A DNA stretch of 33,929 nucleotides from Myxococcales bacterium (GTDB taxonomy: Bacteria; Myxococcota_A; Bradymonadia; Bradymonadales; Bradymonadaceae), in the NCBI GenBank assembly GCA_026988815.1, contig JALSKP010000799.1:1-33929 (forward strand), given 5' to 3'. Made by a program: the position numbers and the translations under genes. Below, one piece after another: positions 822 to 32,796 of this stretch; within the stretch, counting starts at the first letter, position 1; every line of letters begins with the position of its first letter. The notes beneath the pieces were generated by a model that was not told the origin of the DNA, ran no database searches, and saw nothing but the letters and a program-made list of their open reading frames with translations.

Positions 822-3800
822 ATGAAGGGCAAAAACGAGCAACTCGCAATTTCACAAGTTCAAGATTTCGACTGGTTAAAACGCGTCGATGGATTTTTTG
901 TTGTCGTAAAGGGACAGCTTTGCATCGTAAGTCATCCGGACAGAAATAAGTGGATTTTCGAAGAAGTGTATCGTTGTATACTTTCCCAGACCTTTTCGAC
1001 TGCAGAACTTCGCCGTGTGTTTAGTTGTCGCGAAGTCGTCGTCGTGGACCTCTCCTTTCTTTCTCGGTGGCGCTATCACGAGAAACGCCTTAACCTTGCG
1101 ACTCTGGAAAAGCTTATTCAATCCGGAATTGGGCCTGCGAAAACGCTAAAAAATAAGCGCTGGAAACAACGGCTGTCTTATCTTCGTGCACGCTATGAAA
1201 TTCTCAAATCTCTTTTTCATTCACAGGATTTTAACCATCCGCTTCTTCTTCAGCCCCGACAAACAAAAGACATCGAAAAGTCCTTTTTGCACCAACAGCT
1301 TTCCTTTTTCTACGGAACGAGAAGCGCAAATGAGGCTCTTTCGCGCTTTCAAAAATCTACGCCTTTTGAGGTGATTTGGGGGAAAATTCAACCCCATCTT
1401 TTCGAGTACGATCGTCTAAAATTAATTATGACCATGCTCGGCGACGAAGACCTCTCGTTGCATTCCTATAAAAAGGACCTCGCCCGATTGTTGAGCGGAT
1501 ACAAAGAAAAACGCAAGCCATTGGTAAGAGACCTCCTGCAGAAAATTTACGAAGATAGCGAAAAACGTCGTCGTGATTATCTCTCCCTTAAATCGATTCA
1601 AAGTATTCACGCCTCGATTCTTTTCCCGGAATTCGTCGACATCCTGCTAGCTTTTCCGCAAGACAATCTTGCTTCTATTTTATCTTATAAAGATCGTTCA
1701 AGACTGGAAGCGGTCCTTTGCGCAACGCGCGGAAAAGATTTAAAGGTGAGAGACTTGTTTGACCTGGCCGAAAGTAAACTCCATCGCGACGACTTGGAGT
1801 CGGGTTACGAAATCGTTCATGAACTTCATTATTTCAAATCCCAATCCGCGCTAAAAAGGTATCTCCGCGTTCGGCGTCGCCATCCCAAAGCGTCAATTCT
1901 CAACCAAGAATGGGTGATGCGATTGTTTCACTCAACCGATGATTGGGTCGGCAATCTCGCGCTTTCTCTCATCGCGCCGAGAAAAGAATTTGATCTCGCC
2001 GGTTTGTTTACGCTTACTTCAACGCTTCTCAAAGATGTTCTTCCCGAATTCGAAGAAGAGATGGCGATGTGGGATAATCCCACCTTAGAGACGAGGCCCG
2101 AAGGATGGGAAAAGGTCGCCGATGCGCTAAATATTACAACCAGCACCGTAGACGCCTATCTTTATTATCGTAAAATATTAGGAGAAGGGTTTACCTTTTC
2201 TACCGCTTTGGAAGAGCCTTTGCGTTTGGTCGAAAATGAAGAAAAACAACTTCTATTCTTGAAAAAGAAATTAAAGGATACTCCCGAGAATCATAAAATA
2301 GCAGAAATTATAACGGGCTTAGAAGACCCCGAGGGTCGAGATAAGCGAATCGAGAAGGCTCGACTGAGCGCACAAAAAACGATGAAGCGTGCGATAGAGA
2401 ACATGAAAAGCGATGCGCTTAATGGTGTTCTGATAAAGATCGCAAAAAGGGTTTTGAATCGAAAATATGGATTACGCAAAGATGCCGTTTTCTCGTCTTC
2501 GCTACTCAACGCCTTTCATCTCCTCAATTCAGAACGTGTGGACAGTAAATTATTGGCGAGGTTTTTTAAAGCCATCGTCGAAGGTGAGTCGTTTTCACAA
2601 TGGCCGGAAAATCAAAAGTTTTTGACTAGAAAAAGAGAATTTGATTCCCAAGTTTGGCTCGAAGGATTTGATATCCGTTGTGGTGATTATCGTATTTATG
2701 TTGAAAAAGATCCGCTGGAAGCGATTAAAATGGGGTCCTACTTTGATACCTGTTTGGGATTAGAAAATGGGATGAATGCCTTTAGCGCACTCGTGAATGT
2801 ATGCGATGTGAATAAGCATGTGATCTACGCCAGAAATAGGAAGGGCGCCGTCGTTGCGCGAAAACTTGTGGCCCTAGATTCCAAAAATGGTTTGCTTGGT
2901 TACCATACTTATATGCAGTCAAGTGCTCGCGAGAACCTGGGACCCTTCTTTTCCAGCGCGATAGAAGCGTTTGCCGATCGATGTGCGCTGACCTTGGTTG
3001 ACCAAGGAGAGCCGGAAATACTCACAAGTAAAAATTGGTATAATGACGGCTCGCAGAGCTGGTCCGGGCTGACCATCGAAAACGAGAAAGACCCAGATTG
3101 GGAGGCCTTCTATTTGAAGGCGTCGCGGGAGGTTGATCTCGATGCGCTCAAAAAGGTCGCAAAGGAAGGTTATATGCCTTGGCGGACGCTCGCAGAAAGC
3201 GAACTTCTCCAGAGAAAAGACTATAGGAGGTGTTATTTCAATCGTATTGGATTTTACCGAATTCAGGATTGTTTTGAGTCTCCAAAGTTCCGATGTGATT
3301 GGATAGCCGACGCCTTTCTTAGATCTCGTGGTAGTTGTGAATTCGACTCATATGGTGAATCCTCACTGATTCGAATCGATATTTCATTCTCCTCTCTAGG
3401 CCCCAAGACGCTGGTTTCCATTCTCGAAAAATACTGGAAGGTTGCCAGGGCGTTACCAATCCCTTGTCTGGTTGAGCGTTTTCATGATGATTGTTTCAAG
3501 AGTTTTGAAAAAGCCTGGCGAGACCTTTTTTTGGCCGCCCATCTTTCGGGCGAGGATATCTCTTGTGTTGAAAGTCTGCTCGATCACCGCCATGCGAGTG
3601 TGCGTCGCATTGCTCTCTTGGTGTTTGCCTGCGTACCAACGCCCCCAAGAAAATTGCGAAAGTTACTAAAACAAACGAAAGAGACGAAGGAAGGGATTGA
3701 TATAGTAAGAGCACTTACCTTATGCGCAGATCAAAGAGACCTCGGTAGTATAAAAAATCTATTTCTTAAGGCGCCTTCAAATTCGGTGTTCGCTTATGCG

Positions 3801-4634
3801 TTGATGCTGCTCGGACAAGAGGCGCTTGTCCGGAAAAACTGGGTTTTTGATGAAAAGGACGAGAGCGAAGAGGCGCTAGCTCTAGGGCGATCGCTTGGGC
3901 CCTTGGTTACTTTCGATGGGTTCAGGAAAAAGATATATGGTTCAGACAATCGAAAGGAGCGTGCCGAGTTGTTGGAAAAACTTCTGCAGTTCGGTCAGTT
4001 CTTCGGGGACGTGGAGAAACTCGACAGACCCAAAACTCAACTTTATACGCACATCGAAAGCATCAAAAAAGGTAAAAATGACGCCTATTTTTCGAAGGGA
4101 AGTATAGGCGCCCTTTATGGTCCAGGTGTCGCTTTTTCAATGTTAGAATGTATTGCTCAAGAAAAAGAGGATAGACGTTCGGCGCTCTTTTCCCTTTTAA
4201 AAAGGTCAAGGGAGCTTTTATTGGCAAGCTATATCTCTCCCGGAAGAGTCGTTTATGTGGGACGAGAAATTGAAGCTCAAAAATGCATACATAGTAAAGT
4301 AAAAGACTATTTTTCGCTCGGACAAACAGTCATAGCAGGCGGTGATTATGAAAGGATTACCCTAGCGTTGCGAACCCAAGAACCTGTTCGCCTTCGCGCT
4401 CTGAGGCGTTTGCGAAACCAAATTCTAAACAATGGTGGTCGAGGCATATCGATGTTTTTTGAGAATGTTTGTAATAGCGTCGTGTTGGAAAAAGGTGACG
4501 CCTTTATCGAAGAGACCCTACGTATGGTCAAGATCGACGATGCCCCGTGGTATATTTCAACCTTGCTCAATCAGCATGATCGCATCGTGGCAATCGTGAA
4601 GAAAGTATGGCCGGACCTCCTTCCCAAGCAGTGA
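822..4634 (+). CDS. Very large uncharacterised protein (1270 aa) with a conserved central module and HEAT-like C-terminal half
   Basis: I do not recognise a named family. The protein is soluble, rich in Lys, Arg, Glu and Leu, and mostly helical by composition. It has no signal peptide or membrane segment. The central part (about residues 620-700) is the most family-like: a D-P-L-E-A-I-x-M-G-S-Y-F-x-T-C-L core, then N-x-F-S-A-L-V-N, D-V-N-K-H-V-I-Y-A-R-N-R and V-V-A-R-K-L-V-A. I associate this kind of segment, from memory only, with large uncharacterised proteins of myxobacteria and planctomycetes. Residues ~900-1000 contain HEAT-like helical pairs (HASVRRIALLVFACVPTP). The gene starts 27 bp after the topoisomerase subunit stop. 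No strong Shine-Dalgarno is visible before the ATG at 822, but the next upstream ATG in the spacer is closed by a stop. Existence as a gene is near certain; function is unknown. Confidence 0.85.
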   Translation: MKGKNEQLAISQVQDFDWLKRVDGFFVVVKGQLCIVSHPDRNKWIFEEVYRCILSQTFSTAELRRVFSCREVVVVDLSFLSRWRYHEKRLNLATLEKLIQSGIGPAKTLKNKRWKQRLSYLRARYEILKSLFHSQDFNHPLLLQPRQTKDIEKSFLHQQLSFFYGTRSANEALSRFQKSTPFEVIWGKIQPHLFEYDRLKLIMTMLGDEDLSLHSYKKDLARLLSGYKEKRKPLVRDLLQKIYEDSEKRRRDYLSLKSIQSIHASILFPEFVDILLAFPQDNLASILSYKDRSRLEAVLCATRGKDLKVRDLFDLAESKLHRDDLESGYEIVHELHYFKSQSALKRYLRVRRRHPKASILNQEWVMRLFHSTDDWVGNLALSLIAPRKEFDLAGLFTLTSTLLKDVLPEFEEEMAMWDNPTLETRPEGWEKVADALNITTSTVDAYLYYRKILGEGFTFSTALEEPLRLVENEEKQLLFLKKKLKDTPENHKIAEIITGLEDPEGRDKRIEKARLSAQKTMKRAIENMKSDALNGVLIKIAKRVLNRKYGLRKDAVFSSSLLNAFHLLNSERVDSKLLARFFKAIVEGESFSQWPENQKFLTRKREFDSQVWLEGFDIRCGDYRIYVEKDPLEAIKMGSYFDTCLGLENGMNAFSALVNVCDVNKHVIYARNRKGAVVARKLVALDSKNGLLGYHTYMQSSARENLGPFFSSAIEAFADRCALTLVDQGEPEILTSKNWYNDGSQSWSGLTIENEKDPDWEAFYLKASREVDLDALKKVAKEGYMPWRTLAESELLQRKDYRRCYFNRIGFYRIQDCFESPKFRCDWIADAFLRSRGSCEFDSYGESSLIRIDISFSSLGPKTLVSILEKYWKVARALPIPCLVERFHDDCFKSFEKAWRDLFLAAHLSGEDISCVESLLDHRHASVRRIALLVFACVPTPPRKLRKLLKQTKETKEGIDIVRALTLCADQRDLGSIKNLFLKAPSNSVFAYALMLLGQEALVRKNWVFDEKDESEEALALGRSLGPLVTFDGFRKKIYGSDNRKERAELLEKLLQFGQFFGDVEKLDRPKTQLYTHIESIKKGKNDAYFSKGSIGALYGPGVAFSMLECIAQEKEDRRSALFSLLKRSRELLLASYISPGRVVYVGREIEAQKCIHSKVKDYFSLGQTVIAGGDYERITLALRTQEPVRLRALRRLRNQILNNGGRGISMFFENVCNSVVLEKGDAFIEETLRMVKIDDAPWYISTLLNQHDRIVAIVKKVWPDLLPKQ

Positions 4635-6332: not shown

Positions 6333-7187
6333 ATGGATCATCTAAAAGGAAAAACAATCGTGTTAAGCGGGACCTTCAGCGCATTTTCACGAAACGAAGC
6401 TGCCACCGTTTTAAAGGCGTGTGGGGCGCGCGTTACAGGCTCAATTAGTGGAAAAACGGACGCGCTCATCACGGGGAAAAATCCAGGATTGAGCAAACTC
6501 ATCAGTGCTAAAAAACATGATGTCGTTATTCTGAACGAAGACGATCTGCACGATATTTTGAAAGGTTTGGCGCTTCCCGGCGACCTTCTCCAGGAAGAAC
6601 CCGAAGAGGTCGAAAGACAAACGACTCCTATTCCTTATGAGGAGGAAATTAGAGATGGTAAAAAGACAACCTATTATCCCAACTCAAAACAGATCCACAT
6701 TGTCGGTGAATTTAAGAAGGGTTTACGCGAGGGGTCTTGGAAAGAGTACTGGCCCAATGGTCAAATGAAACAAGATTACGGTTGGAAAGATGGCCTCAAA
6801 GATGGCGTGGAATACGATTGGCGAGATGACGCGATTCAGGTTTGTGAAGGCCAAAATAAAAAACACCAGCGACAAGGTAAATGGGTTTATTGGCACAGAA
6901 ATGGAGAGTACAAACAATCCTATCAATATAAAGCTGGCAAAACTTTCGGCGACTATATTTGGAACGGCGAGGACGGAAAGCCAAAGGGAAGAGGCGCCTT
7001 TGAAGACGGAAAACGTGTTGGTCGCTGGGAATGGTGGGAGGACAAAGTGCACCACCATACGATTACCCATTACGAAAACGGACAACGCGACGGCGCAAAC
7101 GAGGTCTTTTATAAAAACGGACAGTTGGCCTATAGCGTTCGTTACGAAGATGGGCATAAAAATGGACCATTTTTGGGTTGCGTTTAA
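6333..7187 (+). CDS. BRCT domain + MORN-type (YwqK-like) repeat protein, probably the 5' part of a frame-broken gene
   Basis: The 284-aa product has an N-terminal BRCT domain (residues 1-~78: hydrophobic strand KTIVLSGTF, then GGxxTxxI-like ACGARVTGSISGKTDALI and the HDVVILNEDDL segment). BRCT domains of this ligase/RFC1 type bind DNA ends or phosphopeptides. Residues ~105-280 are about six repeats with the pattern G-x-W-x-x-Y-x-x-N-G-Q-x-x-x-x-x-x-Y-x-x-G-x-x-x-G, typical of MORN_2/YwqK proteins. The ATG at 6333 follows GAGGAATGAAAA. The frame closes with TAA at 7185-7187, in what looks like mid-repeat (DGHKNGPF), while the +1 frame continues open with family-like sequence for 280 more residues. 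This suggests that one gene has been split; see the next entry. Confidence 0.85.
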   Translation: MDHLKGKTIVLSGTFSAFSRNEAATVLKACGARVTGSISGKTDALITGKNPGLSKLISAKKHDVVILNEDDLHDILKGLALPGDLLQEEPEEVERQTTPIPYEEEIRDGKKTTYYPNSKQIHIVGEFKKGLREGSWKEYWPNGQMKQDYGWKDGLKDGVEYDWRDDAIQVCEGQNKKHQRQGKWVYWHRNGEYKQSYQYKAGKTFGDYIWNGEDGKPKGRGAFEDGKRVGRWEWWEDKVHHHTITHYENGQRDGANEVFYKNGQLAYSVRYEDGHKNGPFLGCV

Positions 7188-28096: not shown

Positions 28097-28923
28097 CGTT
28101 GTTTCGAGTCCAAAATTGTAAATAAATCACCGATACCATCTTCTTTGATATCGGGTAAATTAGTAAACTTACATCGTAATTCTTCATCAGCGTTGGCCAT
28201 CACGAAAGGAAATCCTACGGCCTCCAACATGCTTAAATCACCCAGGGTATCGCCAACGCCGGATGTCTTTTGGGGGTCAACTTTGTAGAGATCACACCAC
28301 CTTCGCACAGCATCACCTTTGCTCACCTGACTATCGGTGATACTTGCGAAACGCATTTTCGGAAGGGCTGGGCTTCCGGCGCGGGCGGTATGAATACCTT
28401 CTAATTTGATGGCCAATGCTTGTTCAAAATTATGTTCGCGCGCAATCCAGTGGCAGCGAATGACGGTTTTACTTGCGTTGATTTCCAGTAGATCTGCGGC
28501 TTGGAAGGGCATGTTCAAAACCTCAGAATGTCGAATACCATCCACACTTCGCTGGTCCGCAAAAACGCCTTCGGTGGTATATAATTCTAGGGGAATATCG
28601 AAGGTACGGCTGTGTTCAACGAGCGCGATGACAGATTCTTTTTTCATGGGAAAGCTAAAATCAACACGTCCATTATGGGGTTGGATACCAAGGGCACCAC
28701 CATCGTAAATATGGGCATAGTGAAGGTCCAAATTCTCCTCAAAACGAAGGCCAATATCTTGGGCCACGCCGGCGCAAGTACGTCCCGTGCAGACGACAAA
28801 AAGATATCCCTTTGACTTTTGCTCTTCAAGAATTTGCCAAACTTTCTCGCTCACCCCGCCATTGGCCCCGACGATGGTTCCATCTAAGTCGAGAAAGACG
28901 ATTTTCTTATGCGCCAAATTCAT
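28093..28923 (-). CDS. HAD-superfamily phosphatase, Cof type
   Basis: A 276-aa hydrolase. Motif I is D12-L-D14-G-T (FLDLDGTIV), with Asp12 the nucleophile; motif II is T46 in VVCTGRT; motif III is Lys202 (SKGDAVRRW); motif IV is GDTLGDLSM (224-232) with Asp225 and Asp229. A ~120-residue cap domain (about 80-195) between motifs II and III is of the C2 type found in Cof/YbjI sugar-phosphate phosphatases. The substrate is unknown. The ATG overlaps the stop of the TPR-like gene in ATGA, so it is the last gene of the topA operon. Confidence 0.92.
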   Translation of the reverse strand: MNLAHKKIVFLDLDGTIVGANGGVSEKVWQILEEQKSKGYLFVVCTGRTCAGVAQDIGLRFEENLDLHYAHIYDGGALGIQPHNGRVDFSFPMKKESVIALVEHSRTFDIPLELYTTEGVFADQRSVDGIRHSEVLNMPFQAADLLEINASKTVIRCHWIAREHNFEQALAIKLEGIHTARAGSPALPKMRFASITDSQVSKGDAVRRWCDLYKVDPQKTSGVGDTLGDLSMLEAVGFPFVMANADEELRCKFTNLPDIKEDGIGDLFTILDSKQR

Positions 28924-30032
28924 TCTAATCCTTCCTTATCAAGAGGTGTTTTCGGGAAGAAAAAGGAATGTTGAATGTCCCTAAGTTCTTTTAGTTCTCG
29001 AGGTCCCAATGCTTTTCTGGCCGAGGCATCAGGAAAAAAACTTACTTGAAATTGGGCAACGAGGATACGAACCGCGGCGAGCATTTGCTCTCTTTGGGTC
29101 CCATACATTTCTTCCAAATCGTCGATCGATGTGGGCATTCGCCAATGGAGCTTTTCTACAATCCAATGAATTGCAGCAGCAAGTGTTGGTGTTGAGAAAT
29201 ATTCATCATAAGAAATGTCTTTTGACTTTGCCCACAAGGCTTTTGCAGACTCAAGAAGCGGTGCGTTTCGATCTTTGATGCTAAGCATGTTTACCAAAAT
29301 ATTTAGACCTGGAGCGAACTCGGTTGCAACGAGATCACTATTCATGTTTACCAATTCCCGATCACCCACCAAGCGGAGTTGGGATTGTAAAGTTTGGGAA
29401 ATCTTCTCAAGGCGAAGTTTAATATCGGCAGCTTCCGGGCTTTCTAAACTTGCCGCAGGTTGTGAAAAAGAGGCATTGAGGGGATCTTTTTCGATGAGTT
29501 CCATAAGCGTGAATCCGACATCCTGCGCTTTCTTCCATTCCTCGCGGCTTTCGTAAAAGTGTTCCAAGGCTGACAAAATAAAAGAATCATGAGGATTGCG
29601 TTCCAGGGCGCCCAATAAAACGGAGAGTGCGACTTCACCGAAATTAAGACGTGCAAATGCCTCGGCAATACCACGTATGATTTCTGAACCTTTATCTTCC
29701 TCGTTTGTCTTATGCAGGGCGCTTAAATAATTCATTAGCGCAAACCACCAGGTTCCTGTTTCGGACGCGGTTTGTCCGATGAGAAACAAAACCTCGGGAT
29801 CTTCGCTTTCGATACTTAAGGCGGCCTTGAGATATTTTTCGGTATTAACGAGATTATTTTTTGCCGCAGCGAGGCGTCCAAGATGGCGCAAACAATAGGC
29901 CTTCTGGAAAGGCGAGGTGGTGATTTTGAGACATTTTTTAAGATAATTTTCCGCGCTGGAATCGTCGTTGTCGATCAGGACTTCGATATGCTGAAAGAGC
30001 CAGGTGGTTTGGTCGACGATGCGATCAGCCAC
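28920..30032 (-). CDS. TPR-like helical protein (370 aa)
   Basis: A soluble, mostly helical protein with tetratricopeptide-like pairs: NLVNTEKYLKAALSIESEDP and EVLFLIGQTASETGTWWFAL-type units between residues ~40 and 190. After a linker comes a second helical half with no repeats (LNILVNMLSIKDRNAPLLES; TPTLAAAIHWIVEKLHWRMP). It is probably a protein-binding scaffold; I recognise no named family. The start is GTG at 30032, only 3 bp after the stop of topA, and its stop overlaps the HAD gene. This suggests co-expression with topoisomerase I, which may be functional or merely historical. Confidence 0.8.
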   Translation of the reverse strand: MADRIVDQTTWLFQHIEVLIDNDDSSAENYLKKCLKITTSPFQKAYCLRHLGRLAAAKNNLVNTEKYLKAALSIESEDPEVLFLIGQTASETGTWWFALMNYLSALHKTNEEDKGSEIIRGIAEAFARLNFGEVALSVLLGALERNPHDSFILSALEHFYESREEWKKAQDVGFTLMELIEKDPLNASFSQPAASLESPEAADIKLRLEKISQTLQSQLRLVGDRELVNMNSDLVATEFAPGLNILVNMLSIKDRNAPLLESAKALWAKSKDISYDEYFSTPTLAAAIHWIVEKLHWRMPTSIDDLEEMYGTQREQMLAAVRILVAQFQVSFFPDASARKALGPRELKELRDIQHSFFFPKTPLDKEGLE

Positions 30033-30035
30033 GAT

Positions 30036-31028
30036 TTATTCGGTCTTCTTTGTTACTTTTTTCTTTGGTGCACTTTTCTTTTTTGCGGGTGCTTTTTTCT
30101 TAGCAGGCGCTTTTTTGGTCGCTGCTTTCTTTGCTGGTGCTTTCTTTTTAGCAGGCGCTTTTTTCTTTGCAGCGGGTTTCTTTTTCGCCGCAGTTTTCTT
30201 AGCGGGGGCTTTCTTCTTGGTTGCTTTCTTCTTGGTTGCTTTCTTTTTGGCTGGCTTCTTTTTCTTGTTCGCCATTTTTGCCTCACGTTCCTCGATCAGT
30301 TCGAGCGCACGTTCAACGCTAACCTCTTCCATCTTTGTCCCTTTAGGAATGCCTGCATTCACTTTTCCGAACTTAATGTAGGGACCATAACGTCCATCTA
30401 ATACAGTAATTTCTTCGCCGCTTTCAGGGTGCTTGCCGATAACATGAAGCACCTTTTGAGAACGCCGTCCTTTGGGTTTGCCCAACATTTCCAACGCTTC
30501 TTTGAGATCGATGGTGAATACTTTTTCGTCATCTTCCAAGGAGCGGTAGTTTTTCAGATGTTTAACATAAGGACCATAGGGGCCAATGGCTACAGCAACG
30601 GGTTTGGAATCGTCTGGATGTTTACCAAGTAGTCGTGGAAGAGAGAGCAATGCGATTGCTTTTTCCAGACTCAACTCGTCAGGGTTGATCGACTTGGGAA
30701 CCGATCCCGTTTTTGGTTTTTTGTTCTCGTCCGTTCGTTCACCAAGTTGCAAGTAAGGGCCGAATCGTCCCCTTAACAAAAAGATCGGCTCACCGGTTTC
30801 AGGGAAGTTACCGATAATTTCTGGGCCTTTTTCCTTTTCGACGACCAATTTTTGGAGGTGTTCCATGGTTAAATCGGCAGGCGCAACATCGTCGGGGACA
30901 TTCACTTTAGAATCGCCAATGACCGCGTAAGCACCATAAGGTCCAACCTTTAGAACGGCGCCTTCGAGATCGATGAGATCGACGATTTTCGCTAAATCTT
31001 TGTCAATTTCGTTTTTCGCCTTTATCAA
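30036..31028 (-). CDS. topA: DNA topoisomerase I, C-terminal repeats and Lys/Ala tail (out of frame with the catalytic part)
   Basis: This frame is +1 relative to the catalytic fragment and has no proper start of its own; family-like sequence begins at KAKNEIDKDLAKIVDLIDLE, exactly where the other frame ends. It contains four topoisomerase C-terminal repeats, each with a G-P/R-Y/F-G-P/A-Y core (VGPYGAYAVIGD; RGRFGPYLQLGE; IGPYGPYVKHLK; DGRYGPYIKFGK), which in the family bind DNA or assist strand passage. The last ~75 residues are almost only Lys, Ala, Pro and Thr (KKKAPAKKK pattern), a histone H1-like DNA-binding tail common in topoisomerases of several lineages. The coordinates given start at the first in-frame TTG near the junction. 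The fragment is separated by 3 bp from the downstream TPR gene. Confidence 0.85.
   Translation of the reverse strand: MIKAKNEIDKDLAKIVDLIDLEGAVLKVGPYGAYAVIGDSKVNVPDDVAPADLTMEHLQKLVVEKEKGPEIIGNFPETGEPIFLLRGRFGPYLQLGERTDENKKPKTGSVPKSINPDELSLEKAIALLSLPRLLGKHPDDSKPVAVAIGPYGPYVKHLKNYRSLEDDEKVFTIDLKEALEMLGKPKGRRSQKVLHVIGKHPESGEEITVLDGRYGPYIKFGKVNAGIPKGTKMEEVSVERALELIEEREAKMANKKKKPAKKKATKKKATKKKAPAKKTAAKKKPAAKKKAPAKKKAPAKKAATKKAPAKKKAPAKKKSAPKKKVTKKTE
30045..30272. repeat. Low-complexity repeat encoding the Lys/Ala-rich tail
   Basis: This block repeats short units on the minus strand (AAGAAAGC and CCTGCTAAGAAA types) that encode KKKAPA-like peptides. Such DNA is prone to slippage, so tail length probably varies between strains. 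It contains no stop in the topA frame, and the opposite strand is open by chance, which produces long spurious Phe-rich ORFs. Confidence 0.8.
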
Positions 31029-32796
31029 GCTGATCTTTAAACGCGCCCTCGGTGCGATAAAAAGTATGCAGATAATCGACTTTGCTTTTCTTGCCGTCGG
31101 CGATCGCATCGAGCTGGTCTTCCATCTTTGCTGTGAAACTCATATTCACAAGTTCTGGGAAATGAGCGGAGAGGAAATCAGCAACAGCAAAGGCGATATA
31201 GGTTGGAATGATGGCCTTTCCCGAACGATGTCCGTAGCGACCGTCGGTGATTTTTTTCAAAATCGATGCATAGGTACTCGGACGTCCAATGCCCTCTGTT
31301 TCTAATTTTCGAATGAGACTGGCTTCGGTATAACGCGCAGGCGGTTTGGTTTCATGACCTGAGGCGTCTACTTTTTTGCACTCCGCACCATCACCGCTTT
31401 TCAAATCGGGCAGCAAGACTTCGGTGTTATCCAACATCGCTTCTGGATCGTCAGATCCTTCGACGTAGGCACGCATAAATCCGGGAAAGTCGATGCGATT
31501 TCCGTTTGCACGGAAGAGTAATTTTTTTCCATCGAGTTCAAATTCGAGATCGATTCGGATGCCGGTTTTCTTTGCATCTTTCATTTGGCAAGCGACGGTT
31601 CTCTTCCAGATAAGGTCGTAGAGTTTAAATTCTCTTCCTTTCAAACCAGTCGTATTGGGCTGGGTAAAAGAATCTCCAGTGGGACGAATGGCTTCGTGCG
31701 CTTCTTGGGCACCTTTGGATTTGCCTTTATAGACGCGAACGCTATCAGGCAAAAATTCATCGCCATAAAGGGATTTAATCGCATTACGGGCGGCGTCGGT
31801 CGCTTGAGAAGACAGGTTCGTGGAATCTGTTCTCATGTAGGTAATGTAACCATTTTGGTACAAACTTTGGGCGATTCCCATCGTTTGACTCGCTGACATG
31901 TTAAGCTTACGTGAGGCTTCCTGTTGCAAAGTCGAGGTTGTGAAAGGTGCCTTTGGTCGCGATGTATAGGGGCGATAATTTACATCGATCACTTTGGCGT
32001 CTTTGCCATTGATGTGGGCCTCGATCTTTCTCGCGAAATCTTCTTCAAGAAGTAAAACGTCTTTTCCGTCAACGATTTTACCTGTATTTTCGTTAAAATC
32101 TTTTCCGGTGGCAATGCGTTTTCCGTCTACACTCAACAAATCAGAGGTAAAACTACCCTGATTAAAAAGTTCAGCTTTGATACCCCAATAGGATCCTTTT
32201 CTGAATTTACGACGCTCTCTTTCGCGATCCACGATCAGACGAAGAGCAGGCGACTGAACTCGCCCGGCCGAAAGTCCATATTTGATTTTCTTCCAAACCA
32301 AGGAAGAAAGAGGGTAGCCGATGAGACGATCTAAAATTCTACGTGTCTCTTGGGCTTCAACCAAGGACTGATCAATGGAACGCGTATCGGCCAAGGCGGC
32401 CTGAATGGCGGATTTGGTGATCTCGTGAAAAACCATCCTTTTAATGGGGACTTTGGGTTTAAGAGCTTCGACCAAGTGCCAAGAAATAGCCTCACCTTCG
32501 CGATCCTCATCGGTTGCGAGAATGAGTTCGTCGGCTTTTTTTAATTCTGCGCGTAAATCCTTGAGCGCGCGTTGTTGATCCGCGTTTTTAATGACGTAGA
32601 TAACATCGAAATCTTTTTCGACGTTGACGCCAAGCTTCGCCCATTCTTCCTTTTGATATTTTTCTGGAAGCTGTTTGGCATTGTTCGGAAGATCGCGAAC
32701 GTGTCCCACAGAGGCTCGAACGACATACTCATCGGGTAAATACTTTTCGATGGTTTTAGCTTTTGAAGGTGATTCCACAATAACTAGAATTGACAT
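31003..32796 (-). CDS. topA: DNA topoisomerase I catalytic core, frame broken before the C-terminal repeats
   Basis: A type IA topoisomerase that relaxes negatively supercoiled DNA by passing one strand through a transient break in the other. TOPRIM domain: Glu8 in ILVIVESPSKAKTIEKYL and the acidic DxDxE at Asp96, Asp98 and Glu100 (ATDEDREGEA). Cleavage tyrosine: Tyr320 in NGYITYMRTDSTNLS, with Arg322. Family motif SAGRVQSPAL lies at 176-185, and RIRTEA-like segments extend to RYTEASLIRKLETEGIGRPSTYA. The core ends with MEDQLDAIADGKK and then GAFKDQLDK, after which the frame runs into TGA at 31003-31005 (five residues later). The repeats continue in the +1 frame. 597 aa cover the core almost exactly. 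The ATG is at 32796. It heads the minus-strand operon topA-TPR-HAD. Confidence 0.97.
   Translation of the reverse strand: MSILVIVESPSKAKTIEKYLPDEYVVRASVGHVRDLPNNAKQLPEKYQKEEWAKLGVNVEKDFDVIYVIKNADQQRALKDLRAELKKADELILATDEDREGEAISWHLVEALKPKVPIKRMVFHEITKSAIQAALADTRSIDQSLVEAQETRRILDRLIGYPLSSLVWKKIKYGLSAGRVQSPALRLIVDRERERRKFRKGSYWGIKAELFNQGSFTSDLLSVDGKRIATGKDFNENTGKIVDGKDVLLLEEDFARKIEAHINGKDAKVIDVNYRPYTSRPKAPFTTSTLQQEASRKLNMSASQTMGIAQSLYQNGYITYMRTDSTNLSSQATDAARNAIKSLYGDEFLPDSVRVYKGKSKGAQEAHEAIRPTGDSFTQPNTTGLKGREFKLYDLIWKRTVACQMKDAKKTGIRIDLEFELDGKKLLFRANGNRIDFPGFMRAYVEGSDDPEAMLDNTEVLLPDLKSGDGAECKKVDASGHETKPPARYTEASLIRKLETEGIGRPSTYASILKKITDGRYGHRSGKAIIPTYIAFAVADFLSAHFPELVNMSFTAKMEDQLDAIADGKKSKVDYLHTFYRTEGAFKDQLDKGEKRN

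What the first reader, a model, noticed from the sequence alone, without database searches (positions are those of the whole stretch)
30990..31050. topA is split by a +1 frame break exactly between the catalytic core and the C-terminal repeats
In one frame the minus strand reads the whole type IA core to ...GAFKDQLDKGEKRN and stops at TGA (31003-31005). In the +1 frame it reads on as KAKNEIDKDLAKIVDL, GPYGAY repeats and a Lys/Ala tail that end 3 bp before the next gene. The break sits by a run of five A (31012-31016, minus strand). The gene is normally essential, so three readings compete: a single-base assembly error, a tolerated mutation leaving only the core, or programmed +1 recoding giving short and long enzymes. 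The stop context AAT TGA C would allow a prfB-like +1 slip (next codon GAC is in the repeat frame), but the AGG upstream is farther away than prfB's spacing. The exact coincidence with a domain border makes recoding worth testing.
Basis: partly seen in the sequence, partly recalled or inferred. Interest (0 to 1): 0.7.

Follow-up and report, generated by a model that had tools for sequence, protein, structure and literature searches.

The report
Private one-base break in topA
The gene for DNA topoisomerase I is interrupted here by one extra base that no relative shares, most likely a sequence error or a very recent private mutation in a fragmented draft genome rather than a regulated way of making two enzymes.

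Summary
On the minus strand a 597-codon type IA topoisomerase core ends at TGA 31003-31005; the C-terminal repeats and Lys/Ala tail follow in the +1 frame, down to 30036. Recoding is not supported. All 18 same-family relatives that cover this site, including the same-genus sister (89% identical core, 919-codon open frame), read straight through it. They have two codons between a conserved acidic codon and the conserved Ile codon; this window has seven bases there, at or just after a run of five A. A frame model places the switch at 31014, inside that run. The part after the break is as constrained as the core. Published truncations of homologues to the core lose relaxation activity, and this is the only type IA topoisomerase found in the genome, so long-term loss is unlikely. 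AAA-CGA is not avoided in this genome's genes, and A5 runs are very common. The genome is a 903-contig draft, about 88% complete; a 344-kb sample held one more one-base break, again at a mononucleotide run. Most likely this is a consensus error; next, a recent private mutation. Reads were not available to decide.

The parts
31003..32796 (-). topA, first frame: Toprim plus type IA catalytic core, 597 codons and stop TGA (31003-31005)
   Evidence: Pfam PF01751 and PF01131; TIGR01051 topA_bact over its cut-off, 743.9 vs 456.4 bits
31007..31016 (-). Site of the break: AAAAACGAAA on the minus strand, between the conserved GAA codon and the conserved Ile codon ATT. Seven bases stand where relatives have six; the A5 run is 31012-31016
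   Evidence: codon-level comparison with 18 family members; frame model switches at 31014
30036..31010 (-). topA, second (+1) frame: four Toprim_C_rpt (Topo_C_Rpt) repeats and a Lys/Ala-rich tail, stop TAA 30036-30038
   Evidence: PF13368 x4, E 2.6e-62; 86% identical to the sister in the 236 aa searched
28920..30032 (-). next gene, 370 aa, no Pfam family; starts 3 bp after the topA stop; unbroken and in the same order in the sister genome

Best explanation
This is an ordinary, full-length, actinobacterial-style topA (Toprim + core + four cysteine-free C-terminal repeats + Lys/Ala tail, about 920 codons). In this one assembled sequence it carries a single extra base at or next to an A5 run in the linker between core and repeats. 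The most likely cause is a consensus (sequencing or assembly) error in a fragmented draft genome. Shown: the break, its absence from all relatives that cover the site, its location, the constraint on both halves, and another break of the same kind in the same genome. Inferred: that the living cell has an unbroken gene.
For: Same-genus sister G001 (= CALJNB010000017.1) has core and C-terminus in one 919-codon frame; its codons GGC GAA GTC GAT ATC GAC line up with ours except that seven bases stand where it has six. All 18 family relatives that cover the site are in one frame; short open frames among them are contig ends. Core and C-terminal repeats are equally constrained against the sister (dN 0.086 and 0.095, synonymous sites saturated), and our C-terminal part has no excess of private replacements (7-12 ours vs 9-12 sister against six outgroups). 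It is the only PF01131 gene found in the genome, and no second copy of the junction exists in it. In 303 kb of modelled coding sequence, the scan of this genome finds topA plus one more clear one-base break, at a G run in an FG-GAP-like repeat gene (L102), against no clear one in 350 kb of the sister. Published work: C-terminal truncations abolish relaxation in E. coli and Mycobacterium (PMC4678816; PMC7192597), so a lasting loss would be costly.
Against: No reads or coverage were available. The many short contigs suggest short-read assembly, in which single-base errors at an A5 run are uncommon, so a real indel in some or all cells is not excluded. The genome is 87.6% complete, so another type IA topoisomerase could be in the missing part. 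The comparison of break rates (2 vs 0) is too small to be significant, and the second break may be a genuine pseudogene.
Confidence: 0.72

Rival explanations
1. A genuine, very recent mutation in the sequenced strain or in part of its population: one base was gained at the A5 run. The cells survive by some remaining activity of the core, a second enzyme in the unsequenced part, or compensatory changes elsewhere.
For: A5 runs are places where polymerases can slip, and this genome's long ORFs hold 532 of exactly five A in 243 kb. Nothing in the sequence separates this from an error; both predict a private break with no decay downstream.
Against: Only one type IA topoisomerase found in this genome. 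Truncated enzymes lacking most of the C-terminal domains have no relaxation activity in E. coli and Mycobacterium (PMC4678816, PMC7192597).
Confidence: 0.2
2. A split enzyme: the core is made from the first frame and the repeats are made separately by re-initiation at ATG 31109 or TTG 31028 in the second frame; the two parts then work together in trans.
For: The second frame is open from ATG 31109, which has GGAAG about nine bases upstream. Separated N- and C-terminal parts of M. smegmatis and S. coelicolor TopA restore activity when mixed (PMC7398561).
Against: The dicodon model sees no coding in the second frame before about 31014, so the first ~30 residues of such a product would be accidental sequence. 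No relative is split.
Confidence: 0.04
3. Programmed or natural +1 recoding (or transcript slippage at the A5 run) makes a short core and a long full enzyme from one gene.
For: Any +1 shift between the A5 run and the TGA gives a full-length protein that lines up with the sister's without a gap; AAA followed by CGA, or AAT before TGA, could in principle slip.
Against: No conservation of TGA, A5 run or overlap in any relative. AAA-CGA pairs occur as often as expected in this genome's long ORFs (28 vs 26.1) and CGA is not rare (9.1 per 1000), so the pair is not avoided as a slippery site should be; A5 runs are common. A slip at the TGA would replace a nearly invariant Ile by Asn. The AGG-like element is 9 nt from AAT, not the 3 nt of prfB. 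No strong structure follows (z -1.2). No paper in the library links topA with programmed frameshifting (the recoding review PMC5009743, in the part held, does not mention topA).
Confidence: 0.03

Closest known systems
Actinobacterial-type TopA (Mycobacterium smegmatis 6PCM, M. tuberculosis 5D5H)
   Same: Best match among solved structures for the core (residues 4-580, E 6.7e-186) and the only one for the repeats; cysteine-free Topo_C_Rpt repeats and a Lys-rich tail
   Different: Here the gene is in two frames; the intact sister shows that this is not typical of the lineage
Homopolymer indel frame breaks in draft genomes (PMC9262707)
   Same: One-base length change at or beside a mononucleotide run, gene otherwise well conserved, other breaks in the same assembly
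   Different: That paper deals mainly with nanopore consensus; the platform of this genome is unknown, and five A is a short run
prfB (release factor 2) programmed +1 frameshift
   Same: TGA in the first frame followed by C, downstream coding in the +1 frame
   Different: No CUU, no Shine-Dalgarno-like element at 3 nt, late in the gene, not conserved in relatives

Membership tests
Bacterial topoisomerase I (TopA, type IA) | Toprim plus Topoisom_bac core and match over the topA_bact cut-off | tested here: met
   PF01751, PF01131; TIGR01051 743.9 bits vs cut-off 456.4
Bacterial topoisomerase I (TopA, type IA) | C-terminal DNA-binding repeats in the same reading frame | tested here: not met
   Four Toprim_C_rpt repeats present but in the +1 frame in this sequence; in one frame in all covered family relatives
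Programmed +1 frameshifting (prfB-like) | Shift site and two-frame layout conserved in relatives | tested here: not met
   0 of 18 family relatives that cover the site have it, the same-genus sister included
Programmed +1 frameshifting (prfB-like) | Slippery P-site codon that re-pairs in +1, with a close stimulator | tested here: not met
   AAT to ATT would mismatch in the middle; AGG-like element 9 nt away (read from sequence); AAA-CGA not avoided in the genome sample
Programmed +1 frameshifting (prfB-like) | Two products of one gene in cells | not testable with these tools
   needs proteomics
Consensus (sequencing/assembly) error | Private to one assembly, one-base, at a mononucleotide run, no decay after the break | tested here: met
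   but a recent real mutation gives the same pattern
Consensus (sequencing/assembly) error | Reads disagree with the consensus | not testable with these tools
   no reads held

The most novel reading that the evidence does not exclude
The break is real and fixed in this species, and the cell makes both a core-only enzyme and, by +1 slipping at the A5/AAA-CGA site or by re-initiation, the repeats: a young case of two-part or two-length topoisomerase I.
Probability: 0.04. Interest if true: 0.6.

Novelty: not a real feature. Interest (0 to 1): 0.08.

Why it matters
If it were recoding, it would be the first regulated two-length topoisomerase I known to me. As it stands, it is a useful warning: an essential gene broken near a domain border by one base in a draft genome is not evidence of recoding unless relatives share the break.

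Tried and rejected
Searching for the organism's own prfB as an internal yardstick: no full prfB in this incomplete genome; the best match is a prfA fragment at a contig end, by my reading. Looking for shared contig ends to infer the assembler type: no overlaps. Looking for a second copy of the junction: none. Other frame-break candidates of the scan (L105, L109 in this genome; L120, L122, L124 in the sister) were judged ordinary gene borders by reading the sequences or their gaps, not by further tests. One family search failed for a wrong frame and was redone. The plasmid search only showed that topA-like genes are common there.

Full report
Observation. The minus strand carries a 597-codon ORF 32796..31003 ending at TGA, and a second frame, +1 to it, that is open down to TAA 30036-30038. 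The first frame holds Toprim and the type IA core, the second holds four Toprim_C_rpt repeats and a Lys/Ala tail. NCBIfam names the first part topA_bact well over its cut-off. A Viterbi model of dicodon use, trained on this genome, moves from one frame to the other at 31014, inside the A5 run 31012-31016.

Context. The window is the whole of contig C799 of a draft genome of 4.64 Mb in 903 contigs, 87.57% complete, and this is its only PF01131 gene. The nearest held relative, of the same genus, is G001, whose contig C17 is CALJNB010000017.1 by its length and coordinates. The gene order topA - 370-aa gene - HAD hydrolase is shared with it.

Relatives. Of 58 relatives searched with the core, 57 have a match. 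In the 18 same-family loci that cover the site, the core runs on into the repeats in one frame; where the open frame is short the contig ends there. A second search with the repeat part gives the same result from the other side: nearly all its matches lie in the same long open frames (848-972 codons where complete) as the cores; one (G015) lies on a separate short contig, its core being cut by a contig end. No relative has the TGA or the A5 run. The sister reads GAT AAA GGC GAA GTC GAT ATC GAC AAA; the window reads GAT AAA GGC GAA, then seven bases, then ATT GAC AAA. The break therefore lies between the conserved acidic codon and the conserved Ile codon (Leu in one relative), where relatives have six bases. 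This also argues against a slip at the TGA itself, which would put Asn in the Ile column.

Constraint. Against the sister, dN is 0.086 for the core and 0.095 for the repeats, with synonymous sites saturated in both. With six outgroups, our branch has no excess of replacements in the repeats (7-12, sister 9-12). The repeats were thus under normal selection as part of a working enzyme until very recently, or still are. This cannot tell an error from a new mutation.

Recoding tests. AAA-CGA occurs 28 times in the long ORFs sampled, 26.1 expected, and CGA is not rare; runs of exactly five A number 532 in 243 kb. So neither the codon pair nor the run is avoided or special. The downstream RNA fold is not unusual (z -1.2). 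From the sequence, the AGG-like element is 9 nt from the AAT codon, and AAT would re-pair badly in +1 (my reading, from general knowledge of prfB). I found no paper in the library on programmed frameshifting of topA.

Genome quality. The same frame scan over 344 kb of this genome (303 kb coding) flags three places: topA; a gene border in L109; and L102, where FG-GAP-like repeats plainly continue in another frame after a G run. In 407 kb of the sister it flags two places that I judge ordinary borders. Two breaks are too few for statistics, but they show that topA is not unique in this assembly.

Function if real. In E. coli TopA a truncation that removes D7 and what follows abolishes relaxation (PMC4678816); in M. 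smegmatis and M. tuberculosis forms with D1-D5 or D1-D6 only are inactive (PMC7192597). The mycobacterial enzymes are the closest solved relatives. A core-only product would thus not be expected to relax DNA. Separated halves can work when mixed (PMC7398561), which leaves a split enzyme by re-initiation as a minor rival, but the frame model sees no coding upstream of the break in the second frame.

Verdict. An ordinary topA with a private one-base break, most likely a consensus error (0.72), next a recent private mutation (0.20). Split enzyme 0.04, recoding 0.03. Reads at 30900-31120 would settle it.

Noticed in passing
L102 (G000:C50), minus strand, about position 4074-4077 of the reverse complement: A second one-base frame break in the same genome, in an FG-GAP-like repeat gene...FGETLALSG continues as DGSHLLVGASYED in another frame, beside a GGG run.
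   Followed up: partly
window 6333-7187 (+): 284-aa protein with an N-terminal BRCT domain like that of LigA followed by MORN_2-like repeats, an unusual pairing.
   Followed up: no
window 822-4634 (+): 1270-aa ORF without any Pfam or NCBIfam match.
   Followed up: no
window 30036-30290 (-): The TopA tail is a long low-complexity Lys/Ala repeat (AKKK/PAKKK) as in Actinobacteria, also present but different in detail in the sister; an antisense ORF of 172 aa at 29883-30401 is only its shadow.
   Followed up: partly
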